A DNA stretch of 32,073 bases, taken from the NCBI GenBank assembly GCA_947453465.1, contig CANGGL010000015.1, positions 1 through 32,073 of the forward strand, written 5' to 3'. Source of the DNA: Microbacteriaceae bacterium (GTDB taxonomy: Bacteria > Actinomycetota > Actinomycetes > Actinomycetales > Microbacteriaceae). Under the pieces are notes generated by a model. The model had not been told where the DNA came from, searched no databases, and saw only the letters and a program-made list of their open reading frames with translations. The translations under genes and the position numbers were made by a program. Positions 15,643-30,407 of this stretch are shown here, piece after piece (within the stretch, counting starts at the first letter, position 1; every line of letters begins with the position of its first letter).

Positions 15643-15715
15643 GCACCTCTAGCTCAATCGGCAGAGCAACTGACTCTTAATCAGTGGGTTCTCGGTTCAA
15701 GTCCGAGGGGGTGCA
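15643..15715 (+). tRNA. tRNA-Lys (anticodon CUU)
   Basis: 7-bp acceptor GCACCTC/GGGGTGC, D-arm GCTC...GAGC, anticodon arm ACTGA-CTCTTAA-TCAGT, T-arm CTCGG-TTCAAGT-CCGAG; no genomically encoded CCA. Confidence 0.97.
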
Positions 15716-15722
15716 CAAATCA

Positions 15723-15790: not shown

Positions 15791-16975
15791 ATGACCGAGA
15801 CCATCGATTTAGCAGCAACTGCCGACGAAATTCTTGAGAAACACTTTGTCGGCCTGCATTCTGGTGGCGGCAAGAGTTCAATTGAGGGTGGCCAAACGGC
15901 TGCGAATCAAGCGCTGGCAAATCTAGATATTCGTCGTTATGCCTCGGACCGCTCCGAGGTCCTTCCGCTGAGCCGCCGCGGTGCAACTGTCCTTTCTCCT
16001 TATATCCGTCACAATCTGCTGACTTTGCAAGAGGTCTGGGATGCCGTCAAGGATGCTCCGGCCAACGATCGTGAGAAGTTCCGCGATGAACTTCTATGGC
16101 AGGAATACGCGCGCCACTTATACGGCCGAATCGGCGAGCACTTCTTCGATAACCTGCGCTTTCAGCAAAATCGAGACAGCCCTGGTGATGGTTGGAATCG
16201 AGACATGTCTTGTATCAATCTGGTTGTCGGCGAGCTCGAGGTGGACGGTTGGCTGGTCAACCAAACTCGCATGTGGCTGGCCTCCCACTGGACAGTTCGA
16301 AATGGCAAGGGTTGGCTTCACGGACAAGAGCGCATGTATCAGAACCTCCTGGATGGCTCTAGAGCCGCAAACCTGCTGGGCTGGCAGTGGACGGTCGGGT
16401 CGGCGGGCAAGCCATACGGGTTTGCACGATGGCAGGTTGAGAAGCGTGCACCTGGGGTCTGTTTCAAGTGCCCGCTCAAGAAGAATTGCCCGATCGATGG
16501 TTTCCCGGCTGAAATCGAACTGCCGCCCACCGAGAAGCTCACTTTGCTCGAGTCTGACCCGAATCTTGCTTCGACCACCGGGCCGCTGGTCACCACCAAA
16601 ACGCGCACTCCTCGAGAAGTCTTGATTACTGTCGACTCGCTTGGCGATAAAGACCCGGCTATGGCGGCTAACCCCGAACTCCCTGTGGTCTTCGTCTTCA
16701 ACCGCGATGCTCTGGGTAAATTGCAGCTATCGTCCAAGCGACTGCATTTCTACATCGAGACTTTGAAAGACCTCTCCACGCGCCGCGATCTTACGGTCCT
16801 GCTGGGCAGTCCTTACGACTATGCCAAGTCACGCGATGTTGCCGTGACTTTTGCCCCGGTACCGAGCTTCAAAAAGTTTGAAAATCTGGCCGAACTGCAC
16901 CCGTATCAATGGCTCCGAACCCCGCATGCCAAGAACGTTCAGTCGTTCAGCGCCTGGCGCCGAAGCATCCACTAA
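15791..16975 (+). CDS. Photolyase/cryptochrome-superfamily protein with swapped domain order and a CryB/FeS-BCP-like four-cysteine set
   Basis: N-terminal FAD-domain motifs LSPYIRHNLLTLQEVW, KFRDELLWQEYARHLY, DGWLVNQTRMWLASHW, ANLLGWQWTVGSAGKPY; CxxCx5CP at 224-233; C-terminal REVLITVDSLGDKDPAMAANPELPVVFVFN...SSKRLHFYIETLKDLSTRRDLTVLLGSP resembles the photolyase N-terminal alpha/beta domain. Confidence 0.88.
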   Translation: MTETIDLAATADEILEKHFVGLHSGGGKSSIEGGQTAANQALANLDIRRYASDRSEVLPLSRRGATVLSPYIRHNLLTLQEVWDAVKDAPANDREKFRDELLWQEYARHLYGRIGEHFFDNLRFQQNRDSPGDGWNRDMSCINLVVGELEVDGWLVNQTRMWLASHWTVRNGKGWLHGQERMYQNLLDGSRAANLLGWQWTVGSAGKPYGFARWQVEKRAPGVCFKCPLKKNCPIDGFPAEIELPPTEKLTLLESDPNLASTTGPLVTTKTRTPREVLITVDSLGDKDPAMAANPELPVVFVFNRDALGKLQLSSKRLHFYIETLKDLSTRRDLTVLLGSPYDYAKSRDVAVTFAPVPSFKKFENLAELHPYQWLRTPHAKNVQSFSAWRRSIH

Positions 16976-17978: not shown

Positions 17979-19115
17979 TTAGCCGAGCAGCGCGGCAAGG
18001 CTCTCGCTCAATGCCACCACCGCGGTTTGCAGTTCTTCCTCTGTGGTCTCGTGAGAAAAACTGAACCGCACCGCGCTCTGAGCAACCTCGGGTTCAACGC
18101 CAATTGCCAGCAAAACGTGTGATGGCTCATCTTTGCCAGCCGCACAGGCCGAACCGCTTGAGCAAATAATGCCGCGCTCTTCTAGTTGCAGCAACACCGC
18201 TTCTCCGCTCACTCCAACAAAACAAAATGAGGCGATGCTGGCCAGCCGCTCGGTCGGGTGCCCCGTCGGAAGGGCGTTCGGGGCTGCTTCCATTACTTGC
18301 AAGATAAACGAGTCTCGAAGGGTGGCAACTCGACGAGATTCGCTCTCACTGTCAGGCAAGAGTTCAAGGGCCGTGGCCAGAGCAACGGCCCAGGCCACGT
18401 TTTCGGTGCCAGATCGAAGCCCGTTTTCCTGACCTCCACCATGAATGATTGGTTCGGCCTTAGTACGACCTCGAACATAGAGCGCACCGGAACCCTTGGG
18501 TGCCCCAAACTTGTGTCCCGAGATGCTCAAGGCGTCAACCCCGAGGGTCTTGACGTTGAGGTCAACCCAGCCGACGGCCTGAACCGCATCGGTGTGAAAT
18601 AGTGCGCCGACCTCGCGCGCGGCAGTGGCCAGGGCGTTGATTGGGTGCAGTGTGCCAATCTCGTTGTTGCCAACCATCAGTGTGACCAGTGTGGTGTCCG
18701 GGCGGAGAGCAGAGCGCAAACCGTTGACGCCCCCGAGAATGGAGCCAACCTCGTCTAGGTCGAGCCAGGTGACCTCGAAAGCGTGGATTCGCTCAAGGTA
18801 TTCAATCGCAGCTAAAACCGCCTCATGCTCGCTCTTGGCGCTGACCAGATGCTTGCCTCGCGGGTTGGCTAGGGCCAGTCCGATAATTCCAAGATTGTCG
18901 CTCTCGGTGCCGCCAGAGGTGAAGATGATTTCCGAACCACGAGCGCCCAACCAGTGAGCCACGCGCTCTCGTGCGCCGTCCAGAGCATTTGAAGCTCGGC
19001 CGCCCAATTCGTGGGTGCTCGAGGGGTTGCCAAACTCATTGGTCAACAATGGCCAAGCGGCCTGAAGAGCCTCGGGTCTAACCGAAGTGGTGGCGGCGTT
19101 GTCCAGGTAGATCAT
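17979..19115 (-). CDS. Cysteine desulfurase, NifS/IscS family
   Basis: MIYLDNAATTSVRPEAL, SISGHKFGAPKGSGALYVR (PLP Lys), GIICSSGSACAAGKDEPSHVL (active Cys loop). Confidence 0.94.
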   Translation of the reverse strand: MIYLDNAATTSVRPEALQAAWPLLTNEFGNPSSTHELGGRASNALDGARERVAHWLGARGSEIIFTSGGTESDNLGIIGLALANPRGKHLVSAKSEHEAVLAAIEYLERIHAFEVTWLDLDEVGSILGGVNGLRSALRPDTTLVTLMVGNNEIGTLHPINALATAAREVGALFHTDAVQAVGWVDLNVKTLGVDALSISGHKFGAPKGSGALYVRGRTKAEPIIHGGGQENGLRSGTENVAWAVALATALELLPDSESESRRVATLRDSFILQVMEAAPNALPTGHPTERLASIASFCFVGVSGEAVLLQLEERGIICSSGSACAAGKDEPSHVLLAIGVEPEVAQSAVRFSFSHETTEEELQTAVVALSESLAALLG

Positions 19116-19132
19116 GGAAGCAGTCTCGTTAC

Positions 19133-19987
19133 CTAGTGCGAAATCTTCACGTCAAGACCGAGGTCAAGCGCACGGGCGCTGTGTGTCAGCGCGCCAACCG
19201 AGATGACGTCGACGCCGGTCGCTGCGATTGCGGCAACCGTTTCAAGGTTTACTCCGCCAGAGGCCTCGACCACTGCCTTGCCTGCGATGAGTGCAACACC
19301 GGCACGCAGGTCGTCCAGGTTGAAGTTGTCGAGCATGATGATGTCAACGCCGGCGGCAAGCACCGGTGCAATCTGGTCTAGCCGGTCAACTTCAACCTCG
19401 AGTTTCATGGTGTGCGGCAGTTCGTTCTTCACCCGGCGAAGTTCGGTGGTCAGATCCTTGCCGCCCGCGGTCAAAATCGCTAGGTGATTGTCCTTAGCCA
19501 TCACGGCATCAGAAAGACTGAAGCGGTGGTTTCGGCCGCCACCAGAAACCACGGCGTGACGTTCGAAGGCACGCAGACCAGGGGTGGTCTTGCGGGTGTC
19601 AACGATTCTGGCATTGGTGCCGGCAACGGCCTCAACATACTTGGCCGTGAGGGTCGCGATGCCGCTCATGCGCTGCACAAAGTTCAGGCCGATTCGTTCG
19701 GCGGTGAGCACAGCTCGTGCCGATCCGGTGACGACGCCAAGTTCCTGACCGGCAACAAAGGTGTCGCCATCTTCGAGAAATAGCTGAACATCCAGCGTTG
19801 GGTCGGTTAGCAAAAACGCAGCTGCAAAAACGTCTGCTCCACTGAACACTCCGGCCTCGCGTGCGGCCAGCTCTGCGGTTGCGGTGGCGTTGACCGGGAT
19901 GAGGTGCTCGCTCGTGACATCGCCCCAGGGCGCATCCTCGTTCAGGGCGCGCTGGACAACTTCTTCGATGAGGTGGGTTGAAAGCAT
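19133..19987 (-). CDS. nadC: Nicotinate-nucleotide pyrophosphorylase (quinolinate phosphoribosyltransferase)
   Basis: EDAPWGDVTSEHLIP, RMSGIATLTAKYVEAV, DTRKTTPGLRAFERHAVVSGGGRNHRFSLSDAVMAKDNHL. Confidence 0.97.
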   Translation of the reverse strand: MLSTHLIEEVVQRALNEDAPWGDVTSEHLIPVNATATAELAAREAGVFSGADVFAAAFLLTDPTLDVQLFLEDGDTFVAGQELGVVTGSARAVLTAERIGLNFVQRMSGIATLTAKYVEAVAGTNARIVDTRKTTPGLRAFERHAVVSGGGRNHRFSLSDAVMAKDNHLAILTAGGKDLTTELRRVKNELPHTMKLEVEVDRLDQIAPVLAAGVDIIMLDNFNLDDLRAGVALIAGKAVVEASGGVNLETVAAIAATGVDVISVGALTHSARALDLGLDVKISH

Positions 19988-21540
19988 TACTTTGCCTTTC
20001 GCACGATGGTGATTGGCTTTGCCATCGATGGGTTGGTGTTCGGGAAGTCAAGTCGGTAGTGGCCGCCGCGAGACTCCTCGCGGGCTAAAGCAGATTCGGT
20101 AACAGCTCGAGCGAGCAGGAGCAGGTTGGCATCCTCCCAGTCGGTGAAGAGACGGTTGGTCACGTCCGCCGAACGCCAGCCAGCCAGGGCTCGGCGTGTG
20201 TCGATCAACTGATTTGCCTCTCGCGCCAATCCAACGTTGTCCCACATCAGAGTCTGCAGCTCAACGCGGTCAACCACGTTCAGCGAACTTCGTGGAATCA
20301 GGCTGTCGGCTTCGTCAATCAGTTCAATTTCGGTTAGCAGGCCGGTTTCGCGCCAGCGGGCGCTGGCCGCCTGTTTTGGCCAGGCTTCATCGAGCACCTG
20401 AACTGCGCGGCGAGAAAAGACAATCGATTCGAGTAGCGAGTTTGATGCCAATCGGTTGGCGCCGTGTGCTCCCGTGCAAGCAACTTCGCCAACTGCAAAA
20501 AGGCCCTCAATCGATGTTCTACCCCAGACATCGGTGGCTACTCCACCCATCCAATAATGGGCCGCTGGTGTGACCGGAATTGGGTTTTTACCCCAGTCCA
20601 GGCCGTATGACCGAGTGGTCTTGCTGATGCTCGGGAAGCGACGGTTTAGGAAATCCGAGCCGAGGCCGGTTGCGTCGAGCAGTACCGGCTGCCCGCCCTG
20701 CGAGATCATCTCGGCCTGGATGCCGCGCGCGACTACATCTCGCGGAGCGAGCTCGGCAAGCGGGTGAATCCTCTGCATGAAGCGCTCGCCTTTGTTGTTG
20801 ATCAGGACCGCTCCGTCACCGCGAACGGCTTCTGAAATCAAGAAGGAGCCAGGCACGGCCAAGGCCGTTGGGTGAAACTGATAAAACTCAACGTCGGCCA
20901 AATCGGCACCGGCACGGAAGGCGGCGGCCACACCATCGCCGGTGGTCACCGAGGGGTTAGTGGTGTGTCGATAAAGCTGTCCGGCACCACCGCTGGCAAG
21001 GATGACTGCGTCGGCCTCAACAAAGTGTTTGCCTGATGAGTCCATCAGGTGAACACCCTTTACGACGCCATCGACCACCTCAAAGTCAATGACGAAAGTG
21101 TGTTCGTGAATCTCGGTTGCAGTTGCTCGAAGCGTTTCAACTAAGGCTCGACTGATGTCGGCACCCGTGGTGTCGCCACCCGCGTGCAGGATTCGGGCAT
21201 GCGAATGCGCCGCTTCTAGCCCAAGGGCGAAGGCTGCGCCTTGCTTATCGAAGTCAACGCCAAAACGCACCAAGTCGTTGATTCGCTGCGGTCCCTCTTC
21301 ACAAAGCACCTGAACCGCCGGCTCAAAGCAATAGTCGGCGCCGGCCGAGAGGGTGTCTGCTACGTGCTCGGCGACCGAGTCATCGTCGGCAACCACGGCA
21401 GCAATTCCACCCTGGGCATAGTGGGTGTTGCTTTCCGAAAGGGTAGATTTTGTGACCAAAACCACTTCGTGAGTTCGGCTGCCCTCTACGGCTGCGATGA
21501 GCCCGGCTATGCCGCTACCGATAACTACAAGTTTTTTCAT
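19987..21540 (-). CDS. nadB: L-aspartate oxidase
   Basis: VIGSGIAGLIAAVEG FAD motif, HYAQGGIAAVV, HPTALAVPG, GEVACTGAHGANRLASNSLLE; start/stop overlap with nadC. Confidence 0.97.
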   Translation of the reverse strand: MKKLVVIGSGIAGLIAAVEGSRTHEVVLVTKSTLSESNTHYAQGGIAAVVADDDSVAEHVADTLSAGADYCFEPAVQVLCEEGPQRINDLVRFGVDFDKQGAAFALGLEAAHSHARILHAGGDTTGADISRALVETLRATATEIHEHTFVIDFEVVDGVVKGVHLMDSSGKHFVEADAVILASGGAGQLYRHTTNPSVTTGDGVAAAFRAGADLADVEFYQFHPTALAVPGSFLISEAVRGDGAVLINNKGERFMQRIHPLAELAPRDVVARGIQAEMISQGGQPVLLDATGLGSDFLNRRFPSISKTTRSYGLDWGKNPIPVTPAAHYWMGGVATDVWGRTSIEGLFAVGEVACTGAHGANRLASNSLLESIVFSRRAVQVLDEAWPKQAASARWRETGLLTEIELIDEADSLIPRSSLNVVDRVELQTLMWDNVGLAREANQLIDTRRALAGWRSADVTNRLFTDWEDANLLLLARAVTESALAREESRGGHYRLDFPNTNPSMAKPITIVRKAK

Positions 21541-21547
21541 CTTGGGC

Positions 21548-22828
21548 CTAAAGGGGCTTCGCCGCCAACATGCGCTCTAGTGCCACGCGGGCATCGGTGG
21601 CAACATTGTCGTTCACGACAATTTGGTTGACCGTCTCGCCGGCAACAAGGCGCTCGAGCACCCAGGCGAGGTATCCGGGGTGGATTCGATACATAGTCGA
21701 ACATGGGCAAACCACTGGGTCAAGGCAGAAAATGTTGTGCTGCGGATACTGTGCGGCAAGACGCTGAACCATGTTGATTTCGGTGCCGATGGCGAAGGTA
21801 GTCGGCTCGGTTGCTGCTGCCACCGCCTTGCGAATGTAATCCGTTGAGCCATACTCGTCGGCGGCATCAACCACGGCCATCGGTGACTCCGGGTGAACGA
21901 TGACGCGAACGCCAGGGAACTCCGCGCGCGCTTTATCGATCTGGGCAACGGTGAAACGCTTGTGCACCGAGCAGAAGCCGTTCCAAAGGATCACCTTGGC
22001 TTCGTTTAGCTGCTCCGCGGTGTTGCCACCCAGCTCTTTGCGGCCGTGCCAAAGTGGCATCTGGTCCACGCTGATTCCCATCGCCTTGGCGGTGTTGCGG
22101 CCGAGGTGCTGGTCGGGGAAGAACAAGACGCGCTGGCCGCGCTCAAAGGCCCACTTGAGCACGATTTCGGCGTTCGATGAGGTGCAGACGATGCCACCGT
22201 TTCGGCCGCAGAAGGCCTTGAGGGCTGCCGAAGAGTTCATGTAGGTAACGGGAATGACCGGTGCTAGACCCGCAGCGTTTGGCTCGGTGCCGTAAAGCTC
22301 CATCAGCTGTTCCCAGCAGTCCTCGACCGAGTCTTCGTCGGCCATGTCGGCCATTGAACAGCCGGCCGCCAAGTTCGGCAGAATCACTTTTTGCTCGTCG
22401 TTTGAGAGGATGTCGGCGGTTTCTGCCATGAAGTGAACGCCGCAGAACACGATGTGTTCGGCTTCGGGGCGACCCTTAGCTGCCACCGCGAGTTGGAATG
22501 AGTCACCTAGGTAGTCGGCGTGCTGAACGATTTCTTCACGCTGGTAGAAGTGGCCGAGGATGACAACTTTGTCACCGAGGGTCGCTTTAGCGGCAACGAT
22601 TCTCGCGTGCAGCTCATCCTGGGTCGCGGTCTTGTACTCATCTGGCAAGACGCCCTGACGTGGAGCATCCGCCGGGATGACATCCTCGCTCGACGAACCA
22701 GGTCCGTAGGCCGCTGGGCCGCCATCAAACTCCCATGGGCCCTTAGCCAAGGAGGTGCTGCAAGTCGAGTCTTTCGACTGGCCCTTCACGATTAGCTGAA
22801 TGCGCTCGTTCACAGATGCTGTTGTCAT
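21548..22828 (-). CDS. nadA: Quinolinate synthase A
   Basis: VILGHFYQREEIVQHADYLGDSFQLA, FCGVHFMAETADILS, FCSVHKRFTVAQID, VHPESPMAVVDAADEYGST, CPCSTMYRIHPGYL. Confidence 0.97.
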   Translation of the reverse strand: MTTASVNERIQLIVKGQSKDSTCSTSLAKGPWEFDGGPAAYGPGSSSEDVIPADAPRQGVLPDEYKTATQDELHARIVAAKATLGDKVVILGHFYQREEIVQHADYLGDSFQLAVAAKGRPEAEHIVFCGVHFMAETADILSNDEQKVILPNLAAGCSMADMADEDSVEDCWEQLMELYGTEPNAAGLAPVIPVTYMNSSAALKAFCGRNGGIVCTSSNAEIVLKWAFERGQRVLFFPDQHLGRNTAKAMGISVDQMPLWHGRKELGGNTAEQLNEAKVILWNGFCSVHKRFTVAQIDKARAEFPGVRVIVHPESPMAVVDAADEYGSTDYIRKAVAAATEPTTFAIGTEINMVQRLAAQYPQHNIFCLDPVVCPCSTMYRIHPGYLAWVLERLVAGETVNQIVVNDNVATDARVALERMLAAKPL

Positions 22829-27590: not shown

Positions 27591-27895
27591 TTGCGCACCA
27601 CTCGCCCAAAGGCCTTGAGAAGCAGAAGGGCGCTGTAGGTCAAAACCGTGAGAAATAGAATCTCCTCGATCGGCAGTTCCCTAGAGAGCGTGATTCCGGT
27701 CAGGTGGCTCGAGTTCCCTCGGAAGAAAATACCAAGGGCAATTCCGGCCAAATCCCAGACCAAGAAGAATGCCACGCTGAGAATTAGCAGGCAGCGGTAA
27801 CGCTTGTTCTTACCAAAGGCGAGTTTGTGTCTGAAATCTAGTGCGGCCAAGCCGGCAATCGATAACAGCAAGGAGCCTAGGTAGAGAAAACTCAA
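27587..27895 (-). CDS. crtYe: Heterodimeric lycopene cyclase subunit (CrtYe/CrtYc-like)
   Basis: 102 aa, FLVWDLAGIALGIFFRGNSSHLTGITLSRELPIEEILFLTVLTY with PIEE motif. Confidence 0.88.
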   Translation of the reverse strand: MSFLYLGSLLLSIAGLAALDFRHKLAFGKNKRYRCLLILSVAFFLVWDLAGIALGIFFRGNSSHLTGITLSRELPIEEILFLTVLTYSALLLLKAFGRVVRK

Positions 27896-29538
27896 CGAAG
27901 GCCTTTCCAGCCATTCTGAGCAACCGGCTTGATTTCCTGAGTAATTGGTCCGGCGCTGCGGTCATCAACCAAACGCTTGTAGACCAGCTCGGCGCCAATT
28001 AGACACATCGGTAGGCCAATGCCTGGGATGCTGTGGTGGCCGGCATAGTAGAGGCCCTTGACTTTTTTGCTGACGTTGGTTGGGCGGAAGAATGCGCTCT
28101 GGAATAGGGTGTGGGCCATTCCCAGAGCGGTTCCAGACCATGCGTTCAAGTCCTCGGCGAAATCGGCCGGGCCCATGGTCCGACGAACCACGATGCGTTC
28201 GGCTAGGTCAGGGATGTCGCACCAGTCCGAAATCTGCTGGATGATTCGATCGGCCGCCGCTTCGAAGGCGGCGTCGCCCTTCCCGGCCAAGCCACCATGG
28301 CCCAGGGCCGGGTCGGCTGCGATTGGAACCAAGACAAAGAGGTTTTCATAACCCTCCGGGGCAACCGATGGGTCGGTGATGCTCGGGGCACAAATGTAGA
28401 GGGAGGCGGGGTCTGGAATGACGCTGGTCGCTCCTTGCCTCTTCTTCTCGGCCGGGGTGCGGAAAACCTCTTTGAAGTTCTTGGCCCAGTCATCTGAATA
28501 AAGAAGGGTGTGGTGGTTTAGCTGAGGCAGCTTCCCCTTGACTCCTAAGAAGAGGAGCATGGCCGATGGGCCGGGAACCTTGTTCTCCCACCACTTTGCA
28601 GGGAGACTCTGGTCCTTAGGGTCGAGTAGCTGCGTTTCGATGTGGTGCAGGTCGGCGTTACCGACCACCACATCGGCCGGATAGAAGACCTTGTCAACCC
28701 AAACGCCGGTAGCGCGGCCATCCTTGGTTTCAATCTTTGAGACTCGCGAGTTGGTGCTGACCTGCACGCCGTGCTGCTTAGCCAAGCGCTCGATGGCCTC
28801 AATGACCGTGTAAAAACCACCCATTGGGTAGAAAACGCCAACGTTCATGTCAACGTGAGTCATCAGGTGATACATGCTCGGGGTGTCATAAGGCGAGGCG
28901 CCGAGGAACACCGCTGGGAAGTTCAGGATTTTGCGAAGACGCGGGTCGGTGACGTGCTTCCCGGCAAAGGTGTCTAGCGGCGTAATGAGGTGCTTGACGA
29001 ATCGCGCGGCGCGGGCCAAAACCTCAGGCTGGATGAACGACTTGGCGTTTTGAAAGTTTGTGTAGAGGAAGTGCTTGATCGACAGCGCGTAGGTGTCCTC
29101 GGCAGAGTCGATGTACGCCTGCAGGCGCTCGCCGGATCCCGGTTCAATCGAATCGAATAAGGCCTTGTTCTTGGCCAGGTCCTCATGGATGATGAGCTTC
29201 TCGTCGAAGCCCTCGTTGCGAGTTTGGTATGCCGGGTCAAGTCGAACCAAGCTCAATTCCTTGGCCGCAGTCGTGCCCATCAACTTGAAAAACTGGTCGA
29301 ACGCGTCGGGCATCAAGTACCAAGATGGCCCCATGTCGAACTTGAAGCCGTCCTTCTCCCAGATGTAGGCGCGGCCGCCAACTTTCTCGCGAGCCTCTAG
29401 GACGGTGACCTTCATGCCGGCTTTGGCAAGAATTGCAGCGGTTGCAAGACCCGCAATTCCTCCACCGATGACTACGGCGGTCTTTGGCTCGTCTAATTCG
29501 GTCGGCACGGTGTTTTGGGTTTTTGCCGGTTGGCTCAT
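27892..29538 (-). CDS. crtI: Phytoene desaturase
   Basis: VVIGGGIAGLATAAILAKAGMKVTVLEAREKVGGRAYIWEKDGFKFDMGPSWYLMP and C-terminal YYAGHHSIPGIGLPMCLIGAELV. Confidence 0.96.
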   Translation of the reverse strand: MSQPAKTQNTVPTELDEPKTAVVIGGGIAGLATAAILAKAGMKVTVLEAREKVGGRAYIWEKDGFKFDMGPSWYLMPDAFDQFFKLMGTTAAKELSLVRLDPAYQTRNEGFDEKLIIHEDLAKNKALFDSIEPGSGERLQAYIDSAEDTYALSIKHFLYTNFQNAKSFIQPEVLARAARFVKHLITPLDTFAGKHVTDPRLRKILNFPAVFLGASPYDTPSMYHLMTHVDMNVGVFYPMGGFYTVIEAIERLAKQHGVQVSTNSRVSKIETKDGRATGVWVDKVFYPADVVVGNADLHHIETQLLDPKDQSLPAKWWENKVPGPSAMLLFLGVKGKLPQLNHHTLLYSDDWAKNFKEVFRTPAEKKRQGATSVIPDPASLYICAPSITDPSVAPEGYENLFVLVPIAADPALGHGGLAGKGDAAFEAAADRIIQQISDWCDIPDLAERIVVRRTMGPADFAEDLNAWSGTALGMAHTLFQSAFFRPTNVSKKVKGLYYAGHHSIPGIGLPMCLIGAELVYKRLVDDRSAGPITQEIKPVAQNGWKGLR

Positions 29539-30407
29539 TGCGGAACGACTCCTAGTAAAGCTTTGGCGAGAATGACAAGTTTTTGTGGGTTAGGGATGCT
29601 GATGCGTGTCTCAATCAATACCTCGGCCGAGGTATTCCGGATCCTCTGGTTCAGAGCATCAAAAAACATTTGGGCTGCGGCCACTGCCTTGCGTGAGCCG
29701 GGGGAGAGTAGCGGCAGAGTCTTGGCCGAAACCGCCAGGTCAGCGTCAATGTCTTCGATCAAAAGAATCTGGGTGGCGGCGTCAAAGTTTTCGACATTGA
29801 CGTTCGGGAAGTAGGAGCGGCCAAGTTTCTTGAAGTCGGCTGACAGGTCACGGAGGAAGTTGACCTTTTGAAAGGCTGCGCCCAGCGCCCGTGCGCCAGC
29901 GATGAGTGTGACTCGTTCTTCCTTTGAGTAGTCACGACCAGCCATGAAGACTTTGAGGCACATCAAGCCGACCACTTCGGCCGAGCCATAGACGTAGGTG
30001 TCAAAGCTTTTCTGGTCGTGTTCACGCTCGGTCAAGTCCATGCGCATTGAGTGAAAGAACGGTTCGATGATGTCGCGCTTGATGCCAACCTCGCGCGCGG
30101 TGTGAGCAAATGCGTGAACCACCAGGTTGGTGCTGAAGCCGGTTTCCAGGGCGCGGTAAGTCTCGGCCTCTAGCTCTTCCAGAAGCCGGCTTGGGTTGTC
30201 GTGGGCCTCGTCGGCTGCTCCGTCAACGATTTCGTCGGCCACTCGCACTAGGGCATAGATGTTTCGGACCGGCTGTTGCTCGGCCTTACCGAGAAGTTTT
30301 GATGCCCAACCAAAGCTGGTCGAGTAAGTTGCAATTACCTCGGCAGATGCGCGTTCGGCGGCCTCGGTGTAGAGGCTCAGCCCCGTTACGTTCGCTGGTT
30401 GGTTCAC
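29535..30407 (-). CDS. crtB: Phytoene synthase
   Basis: [17 protein letters not shown] and [26 protein letters not shown] motifs; GTG start. Confidence 0.95.

What the first reader, a model, noticed from the sequence alone, without database searches (positions are those of the whole stretch)
15791..16975. Photolyase/cryptochrome homologue with apparently permuted domain order
Canonical photolyases and cryptochromes have an N-terminal alpha/beta antenna domain followed by a helical FAD domain. Here the FAD-domain motifs (LSPYIRH, KFRDELLWQEYARHLY, ANLLGWQWTVGSAGKPY) occupy residues ~30-235. A segment resembling the start of a photolyase follows at residues ~274-360: VLITVDSLGDKDPAMAANPELPVVFVFN, compared with the usual VLxWFRxDLRLxDNPALxxA...xVxPVFVFD. 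It continues with SSKRLHFYIETLKDLSTRRDLTVLLGSP, compared with the usual RxxFLxESLxDLxxxLxxxGxxLxVxxGxP. The C-terminal domain is shorter and lacks the R-x-D-L-R signature, so it looks like a swapped or circularly permuted and diverged antenna domain. Function could be a photosensor or a repair enzyme; it sits alone after tRNA-Lys.
Basis: partly seen in the sequence, partly recalled or inferred. Interest (0 to 1): 0.86.

Follow-up and report, generated by a model that had tools for sequence, protein, structure and literature searches.

The report
Reversed-domain iron-sulfur photolyase in actinobacteria
This gene encodes a light-driven DNA-repair-type enzyme whose two halves are joined in the opposite order from textbook photolyases; the arrangement is real and conserved across many actinobacteria, but a photolyase with the same reversed order and the same iron-sulfur cysteines was already reported in marine cyanobacteria in 2022.

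Summary
Window 15791-16975 (+) encodes an intact 394-aa photolyase homologue with the FAD domain first (about 30-215) and a photolyase-type alpha/beta domain last (about 266-394). It is not an assembly artefact: 60 non-identical homologues (51-76% identity) and 25 more distant ones (45-63%) keep the order, and tRNA-Lys ends 74 bases upstream. Direct sequence evidence for the C-terminal domain is weak, but a Deinococcus bridge secures it: window C-domain to Deinococcus C-domain E 7.5e-18; Deinococcus C-domain to canonical N-domain E 5.7e-8; reversed control E 0.3. The internal order of that domain is canonical, so whole domains have changed places.

The same order and the same CX2CX5C spacing are published for cyanobacterial Phr4/Phr5 and Phr6 (PMC9426592), and related NewPHL/SPL photolyases are known. 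The Rhodoluna lacicola orthologue is almost certainly 'cpf2' (PMC8591293).

Best reading: actinobacterial member of the reversed-order Fe-S photolyases, probably CPD-repairing, since the class I CPD-site residues (E100, W103, N157, M161, W200) are invariant. That differs from the (6-4) role proposed for Phr4-6. New member of a known kind.

The parts
15791..16975 (+). reversed-order photolyase gene, 394 aa (probable orthologue of Rhodoluna lacicola cpf2)
   Evidence: ORF; about 60 further homologous loci keep the architecture
15878..16435 (+). FAD-binding helical domain, residues about 30-215; Trp dyad W198/W175 and CPD-site equivalents E100, W103, N157, M161, W200
   Evidence: PDB sequence and profile matches, mapping to E. 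coli photolyase, fold search
16211..16213 (+). C141 codon, putative first Fe-S ligand
   Evidence: invariant in 60/60 and 27/27 sequences
16460..16489 (+). CX2CX5C motif, C224-C227-C233, putative remaining Fe-S ligands; replaces the canonical C-terminal tail of the FAD domain
   Evidence: invariant; same spacing as RS9916 Phr4 C254-C257-C263
16586..16972 (+). C-terminal photolyase alpha/beta (antenna-type) domain, residues 266-394
   Evidence: AF2 beta1-alpha-beta2-alpha-beta3-beta4-beta5 fold, pLDDT 84; Deinococcus bridge; class II photolyase N-domain is the top, but not significant, fold hit
15643..15716 (+). tRNA-Lys(CTT), upstream neighbour; leaves no room for a lost N-terminal domain
   Evidence: also next to the orthologue in two further Rhodoluna-group genomes

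Best explanation
The gene encodes an actinobacterial reversed-order, Fe-S-containing photolyase of the kind first described as Phr4/Phr5 and Phr6 in marine Synechococcus and Cyanobium. The N-terminal helical domain binds FAD and receives a flipped-out pyrimidine dimer. Light-excited FADH- donates an electron to the dimer, which splits, and the electron returns. Photoreduction of the flavin would run through a Trp dyad (W198-W175). Four cysteines hold a [4Fe-4S] cluster that most likely stabilises the truncated C-terminal edge of the FAD domain. The C-terminal alpha/beta domain packs against the FAD domain, as the antenna domain does in ordinary photolyases, but it is shortened and may not carry an antenna pigment. 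CPD repair is the most likely activity. Shown here: order, conservation, cysteines and residue set. Inferred: cofactors, electron path, lesion specificity.
For: FAD domain homology. C-domain homology by bridge. AF2 model of the whole protein with pLDDT 88 and pTM 0.90. Four cysteines invariant in 60/60 and 27/27 sequences, with the CX2CX5C spacing published for RS9916 Phr4 (C169, C254, C257, C263). E. coli photolyase E274, W277, N341, M345, W384, N378, W382 and W359 map to E100, W103, N157, M161, W200, N194, W198 and W175, all invariant in the 49-row alignment. E. coli W306 has no Trp equivalent, leaving a dyad as reported for NewPHL (PMC8948257). Conserved in 26 of 398 Actinomycetota genomes sampled.
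Against: No cyanobacterial Phr4/Phr6 or characterised NewPHL sequence could be fetched, so kinship with Phr4/6 rests on architecture and cysteine spacing as described in the paper. The authors of PMC9426592 suggest (6-4) repair for Phr4-6 because of the Fe-S site. The FAD-side residue D374 (E. coli) is S190 here. The window's C-domain has no significant direct match to canonical domains (hhalign E 0.067, 0.019). The model is uncertain around the cysteines (pLDDT below 50 at 220-230).
Confidence: 0.75

Rival explanations
1. It is a reversed-order (6-4) photolyase: the Fe-S cluster marks (6-4) specificity, as in FeS-BCP PhrB/CryB.
For: Four cysteines as in FeS-BCPs; the authors of PMC9426592 argue this for Phr4-6 from greater UV-C than UV-B sensitivity of a phr4 mutant.
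Against: The class I CPD-site residues are invariant. The same genome already carries a PF04244 FeS-BCP protein, the usual prokaryotic (6-4) type. SPL proteins with an Fe-S cluster were described as CPD-repairing (PMC9649867).
Confidence: 0.15
2. It is a cryptochrome-like blue-light sensor (CPF2) that drives the light responses of freshwater Actinobacteria rather than a repair enzyme.
For: R. lacicola cpf2 is transcribed on a light-dark schedule and was listed as a potential light sensor (PMC8591293); the blue-light sensor of these bacteria was not identified in that paper.
Against: The lesion-site residues are all kept; cpf2 is expressed together with the DNA photolyase; there is no effector domain and no conserved regulator next door outside the genus.
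Confidence: 0.12
3. The C-terminal domain is an unrelated Rossmann-like module fused to a truncated photolyase FAD domain.
For: Direct profile comparison with canonical antenna domains is not significant; the fold search of the domain has no hit at E below 0.001.
Against: Deinococcus bridge: 7.5e-18, then 5.7e-8 over 127 columns in canonical order; Pfam DNA_photolyase E 2e-4 and 7e-4; reversed controls null. Photolyases have the best TM-scores among the listed fold hits (0.48-0.55 against about 0.2-0.4 for the others).
Confidence: 0.07
4. Artefact: an N-terminal domain lost to frameshift or misassembly.
For: None found.
Against: About 60 further loci share the order; tRNA-Lys ends 74 bases upstream and the same tRNA-gene neighbourhood recurs in two other Rhodoluna-group genomes.
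Confidence: 0.01

Closest known systems
Phr4/Phr5 and Phr6 of marine Synechococcus/Cyanobium (mBio 2022, PMC9426592)
   Same: FAD domain N-terminal, photolyase domain C-terminal; four conserved cysteines with the same CX2CX5C spacing
Rhodoluna lacicola CPF2, rhola_00011000 (PMC8591293)
   Same: Probable orthologue: in a 1,430,433-bp same-genus genome the 74%-identical homologue sits beside tRNA-Lys and a peroxiredoxin, as expected for rhola_00011000 and rhola_00011030
   Different: Listed only as an uncharacterised cryptochrome-photolyase family protein; in the passages retrieved by term search domain order and Fe-S site were not mentioned
NewPHL / short photolyase-like (SPL) proteins, Phr7 (Emmerich 2020 and Xu 2021, known here through PMC13274461, PMC9426592, PMC9649867)
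   Same: Inverted topology; Trp dyad; relatives of class I/III CPD photolyases
   Different: Phr7/NewPHL lack the Fe-S cysteines and carry a short Z-domain; a separate NewPHL-like group without the cysteines exists in other Microbacteriaceae
Class I CPD photolyases (1owl, 1dnp)
   Same: FAD domain and lesion-site residues
   Different: Canonical domain order, Trp triad, no Fe-S cluster
FeS-BCP (PhrB/CryB) prokaryotic (6-4) photolyases
   Same: Four cysteines for a 4Fe-4S cluster
   Different: Canonical order with a PF04244-type N-domain; different lesion-site residues (from general knowledge)

Membership tests
Reversed-order Fe-S photolyase (Phr4/5/6 type) | FAD domain N-terminal, photolyase alpha/beta domain C-terminal | tested here: met
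Reversed-order Fe-S photolyase (Phr4/5/6 type) | Four conserved Fe-S cysteines, CX2CX5C spacing | tested here: met
   against positions given
Reversed-order Fe-S photolyase (Phr4/5/6 type) | Groups with Phr4/Phr6 in a FAD-domain tree | not testable with these tools
NewPHL / SPL | N-terminal catalytic domain | tested here: met
NewPHL / SPL | No Fe-S cysteines (as described for Phr7) | tested here: not met
   cysteines invariant
NewPHL / SPL | Trp dyad in place of the triad | tested here: met
   mapping; dyad reported in PMC8948257
NewPHL / SPL | CPD repair restricted to single-stranded DNA | not testable with these tools
   needs enzyme assay
Class I CPD photolyase | N-terminal alpha/beta domain | tested here: not met
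Class I CPD photolyase | CPD-site residues (E. coli E274, W277, N341, M345, W384) | tested here: met
FeS-BCP (6-4) photolyase | PF04244 (DPRP) N-terminal domain | tested here: not met
   no such Pfam hit in P0001; the genome's PF04244 protein is a different gene on contig C1
Photolyase/cryptochrome superfamily | FAD_binding_7 domain | tested here: met
   26.4 bits for the window protein, just under the cut-off of 27; 49 of 49 homologues match at E below 1, best 1.7e-13

The most novel reading that the evidence does not exclude
A widespread actinobacterial clade of reversed-order Fe-S photolyases acts as the unidentified blue-light sensor of freshwater Actinobacteria, or represents an early branch of the photolyase superfamily in which the FAD domain was joined to the alpha/beta domain in the other order before the canonical order arose.
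Probability: 0.1. Interest if true: 0.65.

Novelty: new member of a known kind. Interest (0 to 1): 0.33.

Why it matters
It shows that reversed-order Fe-S photolyases are not a picocyanobacterial oddity but a conserved actinobacterial clade, with Deinococcus relatives, common in sunlit freshwater and cold-habitat lineages. It gives 'cpf2' of Rhodoluna an architecture. It also yields a testable disagreement: the lesion-site residues predict CPD repair, whereas (6-4) repair had been suggested for the cyanobacterial counterparts. The Deinococcus split gene suggests that the two domains can work as separate polypeptides, which bears on how domain order could change.

Tried and rejected
Direct hhalign of the window C-domain against canonical N-domains of the same bacterial family was not significant. 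The whole-chain fold search mainly aligns the FAD domain and cannot show the swapped order, so the C-domain was modelled alone. An attempt to reach cyanobacterial genomes through a Nostoc plasmid failed. Emmerich 2020, Xu 2021 and Maresca 2019 are not held. Phage relatives are only partial FAD-domain matches. The frameshift or assembly-artefact idea was rejected. Internal circular permutation of the alpha/beta domain was rejected because it aligns colinearly with Pfam positions 2-110 in Deinococcus. A literature lead, 'SPL' in Curtobacterium (PMC12029717), is spore photoproduct lyase and unrelated.

Full report
What is there. It starts 74 bases after tRNA-Lys(CTT), so there is no hidden N-terminal domain. 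The window lies in a 1.43-Mb, 74-contig, 85%-complete genome whose nearest named relatives are Rhodoluna and other Microbacteriaceae.

FAD domain. Residues 26-208 match photolyases of known structure (1owl E 8.5e-12, 1iqr E 3.3e-10), at chain positions of about 202-400, that is, the canonical C-terminal domain. A profile of 49 homologues raises this to E 7e-20, and the AF2 model (pLDDT 88, pTM 0.90) matches photolyases in a fold search.

C-terminal domain. In the window protein alone it is too diverged for a firm call: Pfam DNA_photolyase E 0.094, 9 of 49 homologues at best E 0.022, and no significant direct hhalign match to canonical N-domains. Three lines close the gap. First, a profile of the domain finds the C-terminal domain of Deinococcus plasmid proteins with the same architecture at E 1e-12 to 1e-15, whereas shuffled and reversed controls stay above 0.1. 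Second, those Deinococcus domains hit Pfam DNA_photolyase (E 2e-4, 7e-4) and the canonical N-domain by hhalign over 127 columns (94.7%, E 5.7e-8; reversed control E 0.3), while window and Deinococcus C-domains match at 99.0%, E 7.5e-18. Third, the domain modelled alone (pLDDT 84) forms a Rossmann-like sheet; its top fold hit is the class II photolyase (TM 0.52, E 0.022), and photolyases have the best TM-scores in the listed hits. The third line is supportive, not significant alone. In 1owl the family profile matches in two pieces in reversed order. The Deinococcus-Pfam alignment is colinear, so whole domains changed places; the alpha/beta domain itself is not permuted.

Fe-S site. The only four cysteines, C141, C224, C227 and C233, are invariant in 60 non-identical sequences and in 27 of 27 phylum-wide rows, window protein included. 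Deinococcus relatives keep equivalents, with slightly different spacing. RS9916 Phr4 has C169, C254, C257, C263, the same CX2CX5C. The motif replaces the last part of the canonical FAD domain: the match to solved photolyases stops at query residue about 208-214. Weak WhiB matches of this segment reflect the shared Fe-S-type spacing, not kinship.

Active site. By the HMMER alignment with E. coli photolyase, E274, W277, N341, R344, M345, W359, D372, N378, W382 and W384 map to E100, W103, N157, R160, M161, W175, D188, N194, W198 and W200, all invariant in the 49-row alignment. W306 has no Trp counterpart and D374 is S190. From established knowledge of class I enzymes, E274, W277, N341, M345 and W384 contact or stabilise the CPD, so CPD repair is the best prediction; the Trp dyad resembles that reported for NewPHL (PMC8948257).

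Distribution and context. Close homologues (51-76% identity over most of the length) occur in Rhodoluna, Aquiluna, Pontimonas, Cryobacterium, Frigoribacterium, freshwater actinobacterial MAGs and a Patulibacter MAG. In a phylum sample 26 of 398 genomes carry it. The window clade is monophyletic in a FAD-domain tree (99/95); deeper branches among reversed and canonical forms are not well supported and include long branches. The neighbourhood (CpaB-like, ParA-like, sensor kinase, peroxiredoxin, tRNA-Lys, NadABC, cysteine desulfurase) is kept within the Rhodoluna group only. The genome also encodes a canonical class I photolyase and a PF04244 FeS-BCP protein, matching the phrB/cryB/cpf2 trio of R. 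lacicola. A 1,430,433-bp same-genus genome has the homologue beside tRNA-Lys and peroxiredoxin, which fits cpf2 = rhola_00011000 and peroxiredoxin = rhola_00011030. This identity is inferred, not read from an annotation.

Comparison with the literature. [quoted passage not shown] NewPHL/SPL are also described in PMC13274461 and PMC9649867. The architecture is therefore known; what is added here is a conserved actinobacterial clade, the Deinococcus bridge, a Deinococcus split gene, and the CPD-site argument. In the passages read, cpf2 is described only as an uncharacterised family member; the original R. lacicola paper and the SPL paper were not available, so parts of this may already be stated there.

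Verdict. The reading of a reversed-order photolyase is right; the claim of a new architecture is not. New member of a known kind, moderate interest.

Noticed in passing
L093:741-2032 (Deinococcus sp. QL22 plasmid): The same protein is split into two overlapping ORFs (FAD domain, then a separate alpha/beta-domain ORF annotated hypothetical protein), overlapping by 4 bases, reminiscent of cyanobacterial Phr4/Phr5.
   Followed up: partly
L018-L027 and L097 (Asticcacaulis plasmid): A second reversed-order group without the Fe-S cysteines, NewPHL-like, in other Microbacteriaceae and in Asticcacaulis; its C-terminal segment weakly matches the canonical N-domain (hhalign E 0.0011, reversed control 0.44).
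   Followed up: partly
G030:C1:818420-819562 and 843985-845142: One genome of the same family carries two copies of the reversed-order gene about 24 kb apart.
   Followed up: no
L096 (Chondrinema litorale plasmid): A 362-aa relative without the cysteine motif, next to a gene annotated as cryptochrome/photolyase family protein; it sits on a very long branch in the tree.
   Followed up: no
window 17979-22828 (-): Cysteine desulfurase gene next to nadC, nadB and nadA (identified by reading the translations), possibly supplying the Fe-S cluster of NadA; same order in two further Rhodoluna-group genomes.
   Followed up: no
window 27892-30407 (-): Adjacent phytoene-desaturase-like and phytoene-synthase-like genes (identified by reading the translations), that is, carotenoid synthesis, about 11 kb from the photolyase gene.
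   Followed up: no
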